Shown here piece by piece: positions 28,019 to 32,503 of a stretch of 64,000 nt of DNA (positions are counted from its first letter, which is position 1; each line of letters opens with the position of its first letter). The translations under genes and the position numbers were made by a program. Below the pieces are notes generated by a model that was not told the DNA's origin, did not search any database, and saw nothing but the letters and a program-made list of their open reading frames with translations. Origin of the DNA: Nitratireductor soli (GTDB lineage: Bacteria > Pseudomonadota > Alphaproteobacteria > Rhizobiales > Rhizobiaceae); contig NZ_LFVY01000010.1 of the NCBI RefSeq assembly GCF_001050155.1, positions 124,001 through 188,000 of the forward strand, written 5' to 3'.

Positions 28019-30250
28019 TCAGTCTTTCCGATATCGTTTGCCGCGGAAGCCGCCGGCAGTCAGCGGCATGCCCTCGCCCCACGGCGGCAATTCGCAGATC
28101 AGCTTCTCGAAAAACGCCAAATCACCCCACCCGCGCGGCACTTCGGCGATCAGCTCGTCATAGACATGTCCGATCAGCGGATAGCTCGCGGCTTCGGCCT
28201 TGCGCATGCCGTTGACCAGGAAATCCCGCGCGACGGCCTGCGTGTCGTTCTCAGCGATCAACCCGCCATACAGGCCGAAGCGCCGCCACTTCTTGGTCAC
28301 GCTGTCGACGCCGAGCGCGGAGATGCGCGGCGACGTGGCGCCCTCGATCTTCACTTCGCCCTTCAGCGCCAGCTTCTCGGCGATCAGCCGGTCCATGACC
28401 TCGCTGTCGAGCCACTCGCCATCGACGTTGCGCTTCGCCCAAACCTGGTCCGTCAGCCGCGGCGCGCCGTAAGCCAGGCACCGCCCGGACGGTAGCCGCG
28501 CCCACAGATAGCCATGCGCCACGATGTATTCGAATTTCAGTGTTCGCGTCACCGTGCCGGGGTTCTGGATCGCCTCGCGCATGGCCTGCTCGCGCAGCTT
28601 CCAGCCGGAGGCGATGGCCGGATTGGAGGCACGCCAGCCGACCTTGATCAGCTCGCACGCCAGCCACGCCTCGCGCGACAGGACATCGGCCTTGCTGTCG
28701 CCACGCTTCAGGCAGCTTTCGTAGCGCTTGACCGCCTTCTCGCGGCGTTCTTCGGTTGCTGTTTTCCACACCGGTTCGAACAGTGGATCCAGCTTGACAC
28801 CGTAGCCCTGCGACATCGAATAAAACGCCGAGACGCCACCGCCGAAACCGAGGGCCAATTCCGAGACCTTGCCGACGGACTGGCGCAACGGGTGTTTCTT
28901 GGTGATTTCGTCGGTCGTCGTGTTCATGATCGACGCTGCCGTGCGCCGGTAAAGGTCCGGTTTCGATGGGTCGGCGGCGATCTCGTGCAGTGCCTTGACC
29001 TTCCAGTCTTCGCCCGACGACCAGGCGATCACCGCGCCCTCGATGCCGGAATAATCGGCCTGGACCAGATCATGGTCCGGTGCGGCCAGGATGAAACCCC
29101 GGATGGCGTCGGAGATGAGATGCAGCGGCCGCCCGAGGTTCGGCCCGTACAGCAGCGGCAGCAGTTCAGGGTCTTCCGCGCGGAAGGCATCGAACAGCGG
29201 CTCCAGCGCCACGCCTTCGAACTCTTTGCGCGGGCGCGGCATGTTGTTTTTGTTGATGCCGACCGACTGCCAGCGTCCGGTTGAGGCCGCGTGGTAGATA
29301 TCCGTCCCGCGCACACGGCCGTCGGCGCTTGCTCGGTCCAGCATGGCTTGCAGCTTCGACACGGATGTCTTGGCCGCTTCCTGGCGCAGCTCGATCGCGC
29401 GGCGAACATTGGCGGGCAAATCGTCAAGCTCCAGCAGCGCGTCGACCTCGGCCTTGGCCGCCGATCCCATGGCGACGCCCTGGCTGTTCACCCATTCGAC
29501 CAGCTTGCCCGGTTCGGTACATTTCTTCACATAGCCGCCGGTCGCCAGACGCATGTCGCGGTCGAGAATGGCTTTCGCCTTCGCTGCCAGCACCAGCGCG
29601 GCGCGGGCCGACCGTCGATCGATACGAATGCCGCGATCGTTGATGATTTCCGACACAACGTAGACGGATTGCTCGTCGGCCGACAGCGGCACCATGCGCG
29701 TGTCGGCTTCAGCCTCGGTCATCACGTCCACGTCGCAATAATCGTGGAACCGCTCGAAATCTTCCGGGTGGTCTTCCGGTTCGTTCCAATAGAGCCCGGC
29801 GGGGTCTTCGCCCTTGCGCGGGCGGCGCGGAATGGAGAATTTGCGGATCAGCCGCGTGCCTTCCTTGTCCTTGCGGACGGTCAGGCCAAGCGCGTCACCC
29901 AGGCGGTCCAGGGAGCGCGGGAGCGCCATGGCGGCAGCGGTGGCCGCCGTGCATCGGAACTGCTCCACGCGGGCCACCGGCCAGCCGTAGCGCGGCGTCA
30001 GGACCATCTGCCATAACAAGCGTTCGAACGCGGCATTGTGGGCTGAGACCATGCCGCCGGCCTCGATATGGGCGACGATCTCGGGCGGGCATGGCTGGCC
30101 GGGGCGCCAGCGACGGACGGGACCGCCGTTCAGCTTGTAGGACGCCATGAGCGGTTGCGTGTTCGGTGACGCCATGTAGTTGTAGACGCCGCGCTTCTTC
30201 AGGTCGATGTCGCTTCTTGTTTCGAAATCAAAGGTTAAATCGCTATACAT
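28019..30250 (-). CDS. Family A DNA polymerase with 3'-5' exonuclease
   Basis: Encodes 743 residues from the ATG at 30250. Residues 1-190 are a DnaQ/PolA-type proofreading domain: TFDFETRSDIDLKKRG (ExoI DxE) and FERFHDYCDVDVMTE (ExoIII). Polymerase motif A is VQADYSGIEGAVIAW, motif B is LRQSVGKVSELALGFGG, and motif C is GHVYDELIAEVP. The last has Tyr where family A normally has His before Asp-Glu. No 5'-3' exonuclease domain. It is the phage replicase, preceded by an HNH gene that overlaps it by eight bases. Confidence 0.9.
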   Translation of the reverse strand: MYSDLTFDFETRSDIDLKKRGVYNYMASPNTQPLMASYKLNGGPVRRWRPGQPCPPEIVAHIEAGGMVSAHNAAFERLLWQMVLTPRYGWPVARVEQFRCTAATAAAMALPRSLDRLGDALGLTVRKDKEGTRLIRKFSIPRRPRKGEDPAGLYWNEPEDHPEDFERFHDYCDVDVMTEAEADTRMVPLSADEQSVYVVSEIINDRGIRIDRRSARAALVLAAKAKAILDRDMRLATGGYVKKCTEPGKLVEWVNSQGVAMGSAAKAEVDALLELDDLPANVRRAIELRQEAAKTSVSKLQAMLDRASADGRVRGTDIYHAASTGRWQSVGINKNNMPRPRKEFEGVALEPLFDAFRAEDPELLPLLYGPNLGRPLHLISDAIRGFILAAPDHDLVQADYSGIEGAVIAWSSGEDWKVKALHEIAADPSKPDLYRRTAASIMNTTTDEITKKHPLRQSVGKVSELALGFGGGVSAFYSMSQGYGVKLDPLFEPVWKTATEERREKAVKRYESCLKRGDSKADVLSREAWLACELIKVGWRASNPAIASGWKLREQAMREAIQNPGTVTRTLKFEYIVAHGYLWARLPSGRCLAYGAPRLTDQVWAKRNVDGEWLDSEVMDRLIAEKLALKGEVKIEGATSPRISALGVDSVTKKWRRFGLYGGLIAENDTQAVARDFLVNGMRKAEAASYPLIGHVYDELIAEVPRGWGDLAFFEKLICELPPWGEGMPLTAGGFRGKRYRKD

Positions 30251-30659
30251 CAATGTGAATCTTTCCGGTGCGAATGCAGGAAATATTACTTTCCGTTACA
30301 CCAAATATAATTCCTAGTTTTCTGCCGCTTATTGTCCCGAGTAAAGCTTTTATAGCAATTATGTCTTCGGGGCGTAACTTGTAGCGCGAGCAGACACGAT
30401 GCCATTTCTTATCGCGGCCGTTGTTCCCTCGCGTGTCCCACCTAAGATTGAAAAGCCGGTTGTTTGCTTCGTCGCCGTCTAGGTGGCGGCACTCGTGGCC
30501 GGGCGGGCACGGGCCGACGAAGGCGAGAAGCACCAGTTCATGAACGCAATGGCTGTTGGCTTTACCGAGTGCTACCGACAGATGGCCTTCTGTCATACGG
30601 CCCGGATGAAGGATTTTGCCGCGCTTTCGGTATTCATAAGCGGTGCCGTGTCTGGACAT
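30243..30659 (-). CDS. HNH homing-type endonuclease, probably N-terminally shortened
   Basis: Encodes 138 residues. VHELVLLAFVGPCPPGHECR followed by HLDGDEANNRLFNLRWDT is the HNH_3 metal-binding core. The C-terminus has a helix-turn-helix-like segment (SGRKLGIIFGVTESNISCIR). Upstream of the ATG the same frame reads RSLDRTWTQ, which resembles the usual start of this family, yet no start codon is in frame before a stop. It looks truncated or frameshifted. It lies between methyltransferase and polymerase genes, a common HNH insertion place. Confidence 0.75.
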   Translation of the reverse strand: MSRHGTAYEYRKRGKILHPGRMTEGHLSVALGKANSHCVHELVLLAFVGPCPPGHECRHLDGDEANNRLFNLRWDTRGNNGRDKKWHRVCSRYKLRPEDIIAIKALLGTISGRKLGIIFGVTESNISCIRTGKIHIDV

Positions 30660-30713
30660 CTGTGTCCACGTTCGGTCGAGCGACCTAAAAGGCGTGGTCG
30701 GTGATCAGTATCG

Positions 30714-32333
30714 TCATCCAAACACTCCTGGGTCAGTCGCCATTACGGAATGCTCGGTCAATCGAAGACGTTCGGCTTCGGTTTCGAGGTAGGCTTGGAT
30801 GAAGTGCTTCGTGGCTTGCGCGTCGACCGCATTGCCGTATCCTCTGAGGCGACCGACCCTAGCCCTTGCACCGTGCTCCAGAGGGAATCCAGTCGCGGCA
30901 TAGGCTGCGTGGGCTTCACGCCAAGCCTCCGATGCGTGGCGTGCCAGAATTGATGACAAAACACGCAGAGCGTCTGGACGTTCTTCGGTTCGTTGTTCGT
31001 CCAATCCTCGTCCACGTGGTGCGCGTGCAGTCGCTCCACCGTCCCGCAGCACTCGCATGCGGCCTTCAGCAACTTCCGCGCTCTCGCTTGATAGGCGTTC
31101 CGAGAAAGCCCACCCTTGCTCCTGGAGTTGGCGCAGGAAAGCGAGCAAAATCGGCGCTTCATGTATGTCTGGTAGTCTTCCAGCCGTCCATTCTCGTTGC
31201 GCTCGCGCTGAAAGCGACAACCGCAAATCATACAACGCTTCTCCGGCGTCGGTTTCGTATCGGATCGCCCACTCTGCGATTTCGAGTTCGATTTCGGCAA
31301 CGTGTCCGGCGCGCACTCGTCCCAGGCTGCGGGTAGACCCATCAACCATCGGCTGTGGCCGGGGCTCAACTGGCCGCCACTTTCCATCCCGGCAGAAGAG
31401 CCAGTCAGCATCTCGCCAGAAACCGTTAGTCGGGCCGGTCCCTCCACTGTCAGACAGGCCACAGCCGCCAAATCCGGCCCTTTCGATCGCAGCGCCTCGA
31501 TTATGCCGCCCGCTGTGGTGCGCACCCCCTTGTCGGCTAGCGCCGCCGTCGGCGTTGGCCAGCCCGACAATTGTCCCGCCATGTTCAGCGTCATGTTCGG
31601 CGCGAACGGGTCGTATTTCTCGCCCCTCTTGGCGTCCGTTACCGTGGCTGTCGGCCAACCCGCTTGTAGCGCTTGAAAACAGAGCTGCACTTGATCCTCG
31701 CCGTTTCGGTTCCCGAGCTTCGCATCGACTGTGTTCGGACTGCGCCAGCCTTTTAGCGACAAATCGGAGCCGTTGCCGGATGTGCGGTGCGCCACTGCCC
31801 GCAGAGCAGGTATCGGCGGCCCCGACGGCATTTCCCACTCTTTCCAGGACAGCGCGTAGAGTGTAGAGCCACAGCCGTCCGTCACGGCTCGCAACCTGTT
31901 CGCCAAACGTGACTGAAGGTCGGCGCTCGCCGATGAGGCGGATGAACTCAGGGAGTAGGTGGCGATCGTCGCCTCGCCATTCGTCGCCGCAATCGAGACA
32001 TACCCATCCGGCTGTGACGACAGGATGCGAGAGACAACTTTTTCCGCCGCAGCTAGGACATTCACTGCCTTTGCCCGCGGCCGAGAACGGCGGGCACGGG
32101 CAGCTTCCGGTCCAGACGGGCCGGTCGTCGGGCCATCCGGCGAGCCGGAGGCTGTACGACCAGACGCCGATCCCAGCGAAGAAGTGGCATTGGGTGTATC
32201 CGGCCAGATCAGAAGCTTTGACATCCTCGATGCTTCTTTCGTCAACGTCGCCAGGCGCGATGTGTCCGGCGGAAATCAGGTTGCGCAACCACTGCGCGGC
32301 GTAGGGGTCGATCTCGTTGTAGTATGCCGACAT
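30714..32333 (-). CDS. C5-cytosine DNA methyltransferase
   Basis: A 539-residue enzyme. Motif I is [18 protein letters not shown], motif IV is [12 protein letters not shown] with the catalytic Cys, motif VI-like FGEQVAS, motif [13 protein letters not shown] and motif [18 protein letters not shown] near the end. A CPSCGG/CLDC zinc knuckle lies after motif IV. A central Gly/Arg/His-rich stretch with [20 protein letters not shown] is typical of phage members. It methylates cytosine in phage DNA, probably against restriction. Its DNA also encodes a second protein in another frame (30758-32224). It ends MATDPGVFG, overlapping the next ATG. Confidence 0.85.
30758..32224 (-). CDS. Overlapping-frame protein: GWPTP-type phage protein with zinc/HNH domain
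   Basis: An open frame, shifted relative to the methyltransferase, of 488 residues from an ATG at 32224 (a TTG at 32245 extends it). It contains [33 protein letters not shown], repeated GWPT(P/A) motifs and [20 protein letters not shown], all reminiscent of a phage protein family I recall. Residues about 331-433 hold a zinc-ribbon and HNH-like domain ([47 protein letters not shown]). The HNH part is too well formed to be a shadow. Whether the whole frame is translated is unproven. Confidence 0.5.
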
Positions 32334-32503
32334 CAGTCGTTCTCGTCGAAGAGGAAATTCAACGCTGACACGATCTTTTCGGCGTCGTCTCGGCTTTTAC
32401 AGCGCGCTATTTCGGCGCCGTCGGCGGCACTGCGGCGCCGATCGAAAACACAGAACCAGTCTGTATGGGCGGGATGCCCGGGTTCGTAGAAATAGCGTTT
32501 CAT
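32333..32503 (-). CDS. Small hypothetical protein (56 aa)
   Basis: Reads MKRYFYEPGHPAHTDWFCVF then DRRRSAADGAEIARCKSRDD and a helical end. It starts at the ATGA that overlaps the GVFG end of the upstream gene and stops in an overlap with the methyltransferase ATG. Tight coupling on both sides supports it. Function unknown. Confidence 0.55.
   Translation of the reverse strand: MKRYFYEPGHPAHTDWFCVFDRRRSAADGAEIARCKSRDDAEKIVSALNFLFDEND

What the first reader, a model, noticed from the sequence alone, without database searches (positions are those of the whole stretch)
30714..32333. Cytosine methyltransferase gene whose other frame encodes a second convincing protein with a zinc/HNH domain
Frame 1 has complete C5-methyltransferase motifs from FAGIG to the terminal GYGNAV. 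Frame 2 of the same DNA stays open for about 490 codons and has its own family-like motifs ([15 protein letters not shown] repeats, [16 protein letters not shown]) and a well-formed CxxC/HNH domain at about 30926-31234. The overlap covers nearly the whole gene. The GWPTP motifs are recalled from annotated phage proteins, so they may be systematic shadow annotations, but the HNH part cannot be a shadow. Either an HNH module has been read in the alternative frame of a methyltransferase, or this is true dual coding.
Basis: partly seen in the sequence, partly recalled or inferred. Interest (0 to 1): 0.8.

Follow-up and report, generated by a model that had tools for sequence, protein, structure and literature searches.

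The report
Endonuclease gene hidden inside methyltransferase gene
In this prophage one stretch of DNA is read in two frames: one frame gives most of a DNA-methylating enzyme, the other gives what looks like that enzyme's missing subunit joined to a DNA-cutting enzyme that probably spreads as a mobile gene without breaking its host gene.

Summary
On the minus strand a 539-codon C5-methyltransferase ORF (30714-32333) is overlapped in its +1 frame by 505 stop-free codons carrying an HNH domain (30902-31270). It is dual coding in two layers. (1) The 'GWPTP' part is not a mere shadow. It behaves as the small subunit (beta, motif IX) of a two-polypeptide methyltransferase of M.EcoHK31I layout: open beyond codon permutation in 89 of 109 genes, and the substitution phase flips towards it in the specificity region. 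(2) The HNH is a separate nested gene. In 115 of 147 distinct loci it sits out of frame in a long ORF (C5 motif IV located in 95), whose frame has 0 stops against 527 expected. HNH codons, not host codons, are under selection; near-identical HNHs sit beside divergent specificity regions, which favours homing over a restriction partner. Usually the HNH starts right after the beta stop; in the window that stop and start are lost, giving a beta-HNH fusion. Hidden out-of-frame HNHs in phage methylases were published in 2025 (ShiLan domain), so this is a new variant. Expression, methylation and homing are untested. In passing: three groups of terminase inteins carry their HNH out of frame.

The parts
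30714..32333 (-). frame A: alpha ORF, C5-methyltransferase with motifs I, IV, VIII and X but no motif IX seen
   Evidence: motifs; phrog_363; family profile matches M.HhaI; Foldseek: C5-methyltransferases
32166..32180 (-). alpha motif I FAGIG
   Evidence: sequence
32082..32099 (-). alpha motif IV PCPPFS (PCQPFS in the family consensus)
   Evidence: sequence
31977..32066 (-). extra CxxC...CxxC zinc-ribbon-like insert in alpha, not in the family consensus
   Evidence: weak Pfam match PF08274, E 0.26
30758..32245 (-). frame B ORF: beta-HNH fusion (alternative start ATG at 32224)
31322..31369 (-). beta motif IX-like [16 protein letters not shown]; the same DNA read in frame A ([16 protein letters not shown]) is the upstream copy of a repeated segment
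30902..31270 (-). HNH endonuclease domain with N-terminal zinc fingers, frame B
30825..30884 (-). downstream copy of the repeated segment, [20 protein letters not shown], with alpha motif X, frame A
31308..31438 (-). stretch of window 20001-44000 with DNA-level similarity (80-90%) to 10 known phage records (8 listed, all at this place); lies in the alpha/beta overlap at motif IX

Best explanation
The locus encodes a split C5-cytosine methyltransferase plus a nested mobile endonuclease. Frame A gives the large subunit (alpha: motifs I, IV, VIII and X). Frame B gives the small subunit (beta: specificity region and motif IX), so the two polypeptides together hold all the motifs scored, as described for M.EcoHK31I. 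An HNH homing endonuclease gene was inserted just after the end of beta, in beta's frame. Because its coding sequence is kept free of stops in its -1 frame, the alpha ORF reads through it and reaches motif X, at the price of a roughly 140-residue shadow insert in alpha. The HNH probably cuts HNH-free alleles at the conserved motif IX/X segment and is copied in by repair. In most relatives of this layout the HNH has a start directly after the beta stop, so it can be translated by restart; in the window the stop and ATG are gone and it is made, if at all, as a beta-HNH fusion. Shown here: both frames selected, the HNH selected as a protein, the host frame kept open, the insertion anatomy. Inferred: subunit assembly, methylation, cutting, homing, fusion expression.
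For: Beta frame: 89 of 109 distinct alpha genes, with and without HNH, have it open beyond codon permutation (p<0.05), +2 control 3 of 109; stops 444 seen against 816 expected, control 2005 against 1864. Substitutions at alpha codon positions 1/2/3 in 28 independent HNH-less pairs: 89/86/410 before beta starts, 374/282/812 in the core, 1190/771/1071 in the TRD region, where position 1 (= beta position 3) overtakes, 189/131/287 in the tail. HNH: 39 independent pairs, HNH positions 1/2/3 = 647/599/1384. Host frame over 115 nested HNHs: 0 stops, 527.5 expected; 32 other HNHs: 309 against 326.6. Free L171 pairs with nested L198 in the tree (starred fork): 5 stops against 0. Repeated segment, in the 39 window-type loci where both copies were located: upstream copy keeps beta (identity 0.72 against 0.37, 39 of 39), downstream copy keeps alpha (0.62 against 0.41, 33 of 39). 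Junction: 60 of 64 loci have the beta stop within 40 codons of the HNH zinc finger, 57 of these a start after it (56 ATG), 39 an SD-like motif (no chance control run for the motif). Homing rather than restriction partner: in six pairs HNHs 85-97% identical lie beside beta TRDs 33-67% identical. No Rfam match at gathering thresholds.
Against: The AlphaFold model of beta is poor (pLDDT 62.6, pTM 0.30) and matches no solved structure; the beta profile finds nothing in the PDB even at E 10. The conservation test on 60 distant pairs is weak: the +2 control frame also exceeds permutation (TRD mean z 3.1 against 6.0 for beta; core 4.6 against 5.8). 'Nested' was defined by an open host frame, so 0 stops is by construction; the force lies in the gap between the groups and in the expected number. 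L176 has the HNH in the other phase of its methyltransferase. In L102, L103, L126 and L207 the ORF in which motif IV was found ends hundreds of bases before the HNH. TRD pieces were cut out by a motif, differ in length, and cover 31 loci. Part of the HNH shadow in alpha is predicted as confident helices, so it may be more than a passive shadow. Homology to M.EcoHK31I itself was not tested. No expression data; in the window the HNH has no obvious start or Shine-Dalgarno of its own.
Confidence: 0.75

Rival explanations
1. The HNH is the restriction partner of the methyltransferase: a compact restriction-modification system nested in one gene.
For: C5 motif IV was located by the HNH in 95 of 115 nested loci.
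Against: Pairs with HNH 85-97% identical have beta TRDs only 33-67% identical (six pairs). No HNH was found in 75 of the 80 loci kept by the alpha query. Related HNHs are free-standing (L171); a more distant one sits in a terminase intein.
Confidence: 0.1
2. Only alpha and the HNH are real; the GWPTP frame is a by-product of alpha codon use.
For: Alpha carries the catalytic motifs; the beta model is poor and unmatched; the control frame also exceeds permutation.
Against: Open-frame excess in 89 of 109 genes, phase flip in the TRD region, upstream repeat copy keeping beta in 39 of 39 loci, motif IX found in frame B and not A in window-type loci.
Confidence: 0.1
3. The insert is a group I intron or an intein that is spliced out.
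For: Inserted in a conserved segment as homing introns and inteins are; a related HNH does occur inside inteins.
Against: No Rfam match at gathering thresholds in 30600-32500; no intein domain among Pfam matches of alpha up to E 1; in most window-type relatives the beta stop lies only about 11-15 codons before the first HNH zinc finger, too little room for an intron; host frame kept open over the HNH.
Confidence: 0.03
4. The window copy is decaying: HNH start lost, an odd zinc-ribbon insert in alpha, PCPPFS for PCQPFS.
For: The stop and ATG seen at the junction in relatives are missing; alpha oddities.
Against: The window HNH keeps the conserved residues; both frames are fully open; a second fused group (L008, L214, L215) shows HNH substitutions 24/15/47, 16/11/35 and 24/18/49 at positions 1/2/3 (not independent pairs), as under continued selection.
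Confidence: 0.15

Closest known systems
ShiLan domain, hidden out-of-frame HNH in actinobacteriophage methylases (Arsenault, Gosselin, Gogarten 2025, PMC11855218; seen: abstract, Introduction, first part of Results, section 3.6, Discussion, figure legends and tables, and a word search)
   Same: HNH gene out of frame inside a phage methylase gene; no stops in the host frame; start of the insert resembles the sequence after the site; no intron or intein found; homing proposed.
   Different: ShiLan gp65 reads as a DPPY-type (amino) methylase with the HNH in its +2 frame; here C5-methyltransferases, HNH in +1 of the read-through ORF in 115 loci and in +2 in one; an HNH that looks different by eye (no alignment made); a beta subunit in the same frame upstream, SD-like motifs and stop/start junctions (the paper reports no detectable RBS), and a fusion.
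M.EcoHK31I (two-polypeptide C5-methyltransferase; passage in PMC3404938; the original 1995 paper is not held)
   Same: Large subunit with motifs I-VIII and X, motif IX in the small one.
   Different: No HNH mentioned in the passage; that its genes overlap in different frames is recalled, not read; the passage puts the predicted TRD in the large subunit, whereas here selection on the TRD region points to beta; sequence relation not tested.
M.AquI (passage in PMC3404938)
   Same: In L218-type loci motifs IX and X are both in the second frame and the core's frame ends near the HNH, the M.AquI split.
   Different: Here the split goes with the HNH insert and its phase.

Membership tests
Two-subunit C5-methyltransferase of M.EcoHK31I layout | motifs I-VIII and X in one polypeptide, IX in another | tested here: met
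   By expressions for IV, IX and X: IV in A, IX in B, X in A in 41 of 115 nested loci, the window among them; 16 more with X not caught and 6 with IV not caught. I and VIII seen in the window's A; other motifs not scored.
Two-subunit C5-methyltransferase of M.EcoHK31I layout | second frame is selected as a protein | tested here: met
Two-subunit C5-methyltransferase of M.EcoHK31I layout | small subunit folds as a methyltransferase part | tested here: inconclusive
   low-confidence model, no structural or PDB profile match
Two-subunit C5-methyltransferase of M.EcoHK31I layout | both polypeptides needed for methylation | not testable with these tools
   bench test
Two-subunit C5-methyltransferase of M.EcoHK31I layout | sequence homology to M.EcoHK31I | not tested
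   no reference sequence at hand
Hidden out-of-frame HNH insertion (ShiLan kind) | HNH ORF out of frame in a methylase gene whose frame stays open | tested here: met
   window
Hidden out-of-frame HNH insertion (ShiLan kind) | HNH-free homologues without the insert | tested here: met
   alpha alignments of HNH-less relatives end near 342 and resume near 483
Hidden out-of-frame HNH insertion (ShiLan kind) | demonstrated homing | not testable with these tools
   in the parts of the paper seen, homing is inferred from distribution
Hidden out-of-frame HNH insertion (ShiLan kind) | same host methylase class and phase as ShiLan gp65 (feature of the type case, not of the kind) | tested here: not met
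   DPPY methylase, HNH in +2
Group I intron or intein | intron RNA or intein splicing domain | tested here: not met

The most novel reading that the evidence does not exclude
Out-of-frame HNH genes are a general class of homing element that persists in coding genes because natural selection keeps a second reading frame of the nuclease gene translatable. The same design serves several methyltransferase layouts and terminase inteins, where the endonuclease lies in another frame than the intein's own splicing domain. The methyltransferase cases differ only in that the shadow peptide is tolerated rather than spliced out.
Probability: 0.5. Interest if true: 0.8.

Novelty: new variant of a known kind. 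Interest (0 to 1): 0.66.

Why it matters
It turns a suspected annotation artefact into overlapping genes selected in different segments, and shows that hidden HNH genes recur in many IMG/VR contigs and can go unannotated (for example Staphylococcus phage CUB-EPI_14, where the place is annotated only as a methyltransferase). It bears on a question left open in the 2025 paper, how hidden HNHs are translated: here there is usually a start directly after the beta stop, often with a Shine-Dalgarno-like motif, or a fusion. It offers a natural experiment in which the insert seems to decide which methyltransferase polypeptide carries motif X. It also warns that phrog_363 and phrog_1008 match the same DNA in two frames here.

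Tried and rejected
Pfam and NCBIfam on the two window frames: nothing above cut-offs. PDB profile search with beta: no match. Structure of beta: low confidence, no match. Conservation against codon permutation on 60 distant pairs: both frames exceed, so of little weight. The first comparison of the repeated segment used a wrong offset for the downstream copy and was redone. In the window's phylum 3 of 398 genomes, the window's own among them, match the window-type HNH profile at E <= 1e-8, so prevalence was judged from viral contigs; those scans were capped at 80 loci each, so counts from them are not frequencies. HNH tree: few columns for 126 rows, bootstrap not settled; used only for the two places of the fused copies, the mixing of host types and the L171/L198 pair. 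Intron or intein, restriction partner and pure shadow were considered and rejected as stated under rivals. Paper searches: HNH with alternative frame, nested homing endonucleases, EcoHK31I, HNH with cytosine methyltransferase, YGGCCR, alternate-frame homing endonucleases, overlapping subunits, ShiLan, prophage overlapping genes, out-of-frame inteins; the library holds open-licence papers only.

Full report
Observation. The two ORFs are on the minus strand and real. Frame A is a C5-methyltransferase-like protein (phrog_363; the family profile matches M.HhaI in the PDB; the model matches C5-methyltransferases such as M.HhaI and M.HaeIII). Frame B, one base further on, is free of stops for 505 codons. 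Its first part matches phrog_31772 and phrog_1008 and its last part HNH families. The window is part of a prophage (an identical viral contig in IMG/VR; integrase, exonuclease and helicase families around).

Relatives. Protein searches with A and B found 227 and 193 phage records, and 80 (capped, 592 confirmed) and 6 viral contigs. In HNH-less relatives the alpha alignment ends near residue 342 and resumes near 483, so some 140 residues of the window's alpha are an insert. Relatives with the insert carry the HNH in the same frame as here (seven loci read, six with the insert). An HNH was found in 5 of the 80 alpha-query loci.

The HNH is a nested gene. Scans with HNH alignments together with earlier loci gave 183 loci with an HNH match, 147 after removal of near-copies. 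In 115 the HNH lies in the +1 frame of a longer ORF that runs through it; in the other 32 the piece of that frame at the middle of the HNH is at most 49 codons. C5 motif IV was located in 95 of the 115 (79 in the read-through frame A, 16 in frame C), but in L102, L103, L126 and L207 its ORF ends hundreds of bases before the HNH. One of the 115, L159, is a terminase with an intein, not a methyltransferase. In the 115 the host frame has 0 stops where codon permutation expects 527.5; in the 32 others 309 against 326.6; the remaining forward frame shows no depletion (426 against 380.7 and 114 against 105.9). Because nested was defined by the open frame, the weight is in the size of the deficit and the gap between the groups. 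One of the 32, L176, is nested in the other phase of a C5-methyltransferase. Substitutions in 39 independent pairs fall mostly on HNH codon position 3 (647/599/1384): the HNH is the selected protein, and the host's reading of it is selected mainly to stay open. In the alpha model the stretch opposite the beta TRD (211-308) is below pLDDT 50, while part of the HNH shadow (about 341-410) is predicted as helices with block means of 71-93, so it may be a compact tolerated insert or more.

The GWPTP frame is a second gene. In HNH-less alpha genes the B frame is open for 217 to 490 codons, typically to an end like [17 protein letters not shown] plus a basic tail (output partly cut). It exceeds codon permutation in 89 of 109 distinct genes with and without HNH, the control frame in 3. 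In 28 independent HNH-less pairs, alpha position 3 takes 70% of substitutions before beta starts, 55% in the core and 35% in the TRD region, where alpha position 1, which is beta position 3, takes 39%; in the tail position 3 takes 47%. So alpha is the more constrained in core and tail, beta in the specificity region. I found no motif IX in window-type alpha; beta ends in [16 protein letters not shown], which I read as motif IX. M.EcoHK31I is described as having motif IX alone in its small subunit and the rest, with the predicted TRD, in the large one (PMC3404938, passage). That the EcoHK31I genes overlap in different frames is recalled.

The insert and the repeated segment. In window-type loci a segment of about 20 codons occurs on both sides of the HNH; both copies were located in 39 loci. 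The upstream copy keeps the beta reading (mean identity to the HNH-less consensus 0.72, against 0.37 in alpha; 39 of 39), the downstream copy the alpha reading with motif X (0.62 against 0.41; 33 of 39). This is expected if both readings matter. The first residues of the ShiLan insert also resemble the sequence after its site (PMC11855218).

Layouts, by motif frames. Alpha in A, IX upstream in B, X downstream in A: 41 loci in full, 16 more without X caught and 6 without IV caught. In 15 loci (10+4+1) the core is in the third frame, its ORF ending between 290 bases before and 52 bases after the start of the HNH match, and the read-through frame is another: five loci of this look, L218, L254, L227, L151 and L117, were read in full, and there the GWPTP frame runs through the HNH to motif X (in L117 the core ends much earlier). 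Eight of ten host ORFs scanned match phrog_1008. This is the M.AquI distribution. In 13 loci a motif IX lies downstream of the HNH in the host frame (12 without L126, whose host matches phrog_1008). The other 24 were not resolved by the expressions. Motif X, where caught (72 loci), is in the HNH's -1 frame each time.

Translation of the HNH. In 64 loci with motif IX upstream in the HNH frame, 60 have a stop within 40 codons of the first zinc finger; of these 57 have a start after it, 56 an ATG, and 39 an SD-like motif, often with stop and ATG adjacent; no chance control was run for the motif. Four, the window among them, lack the stop and have a beta-HNH fusion; they fall in two places of the HNH tree. 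In the second group HNH substitutions still favour position 3 (24/15/47, 16/11/35, 24/18/49, overlapping pairs), which suggests expression through the beta frame.

Function. Homing is favoured over a restriction partner: in six pairs near-identical HNHs lie beside very different TRDs (TRD pieces cut out by a motif, of unequal length, 31 loci), most alpha-query loci lack the HNH, the HNH tree mixes host types, and relatives are free-standing (L171) or, more distantly, in inteins. No intron was found at Rfam's thresholds. No cutting or homing was shown.

Known or new. The general idea, an out-of-frame HNH homing insert in a phage methylase, is published (PMC11855218). Its type case differs in methylase class and phase, the paper reports no detectable RBS, and a word search of it found neither 'subunit' nor 'EcoHK'. 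I therefore rate this a new variant of a known kind. The searches named under Tried and rejected listed no paper that I recognised as describing the combination.

Beyond the finding. One HNH hit (L159) is a terminase gene with an intein whose HNH is in the +1 frame between the splicing blocks; L269 and L271-L273 show the same, with 0 stops in the intein frame against 7.9 to 18.7 expected. L275 has a shortened HNH in the same setting. One paper search with four terms found nothing, which is a narrow search.

Noticed in passing
L159 865-3768 (same contig as L268), L269 586-3069, L271 1351-3945, L272 and L273: Terminase genes with an intein (PF14890 in L159, L269, L271) whose HNH endonuclease is encoded out of frame (+1) between the splicing blocks; 0 stops in the intein frame against 7.9-18.7 expected over 275-334 codons (four loci). 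L275 looks like a stage with a shortened HNH.
   Followed up: partly
L263 1342-3147 (Staphylococcus phage CUB-EPI_14, ON325435.2): Nested HNH with an AGGAGG before its ATG inside a gene annotated only as DNA-cytosine methyltransferase; 0 host-frame stops against 10.1 expected.
   Followed up: partly
L176 1691-3472: Sphingomonas record: HNH nested in the other phase (+2) of a C5-methyltransferase, the phase seen in ShiLan gp65.
   Followed up: partly
L218, L220, L227, L228, L232, L234, L237, L241, L245, L247 and others: Methyltransferase core in a third frame ending near the HNH, with motif X reached by the GWPTP frame where read: an M.AquI-like split that goes with the insert.
   Followed up: partly
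31977-32066: Zinc-ribbon-like insert (CPSCGG...CLDCGDEW) in the window's alpha between motif IV and the following conserved block, not in the family consensus.
   Followed up: no
30243-30659: A second HNH gene (phrog_1492), a separate ORF between the methyltransferase and a DNA polymerase gene (28019-30253, phrog_17).
   Followed up: no
window 30758-32333; PHROGs phrog_363 and phrog_1008/phrog_31772: Families all annotated DNA methyltransferase that match the same DNA in different frames.
   Followed up: partly
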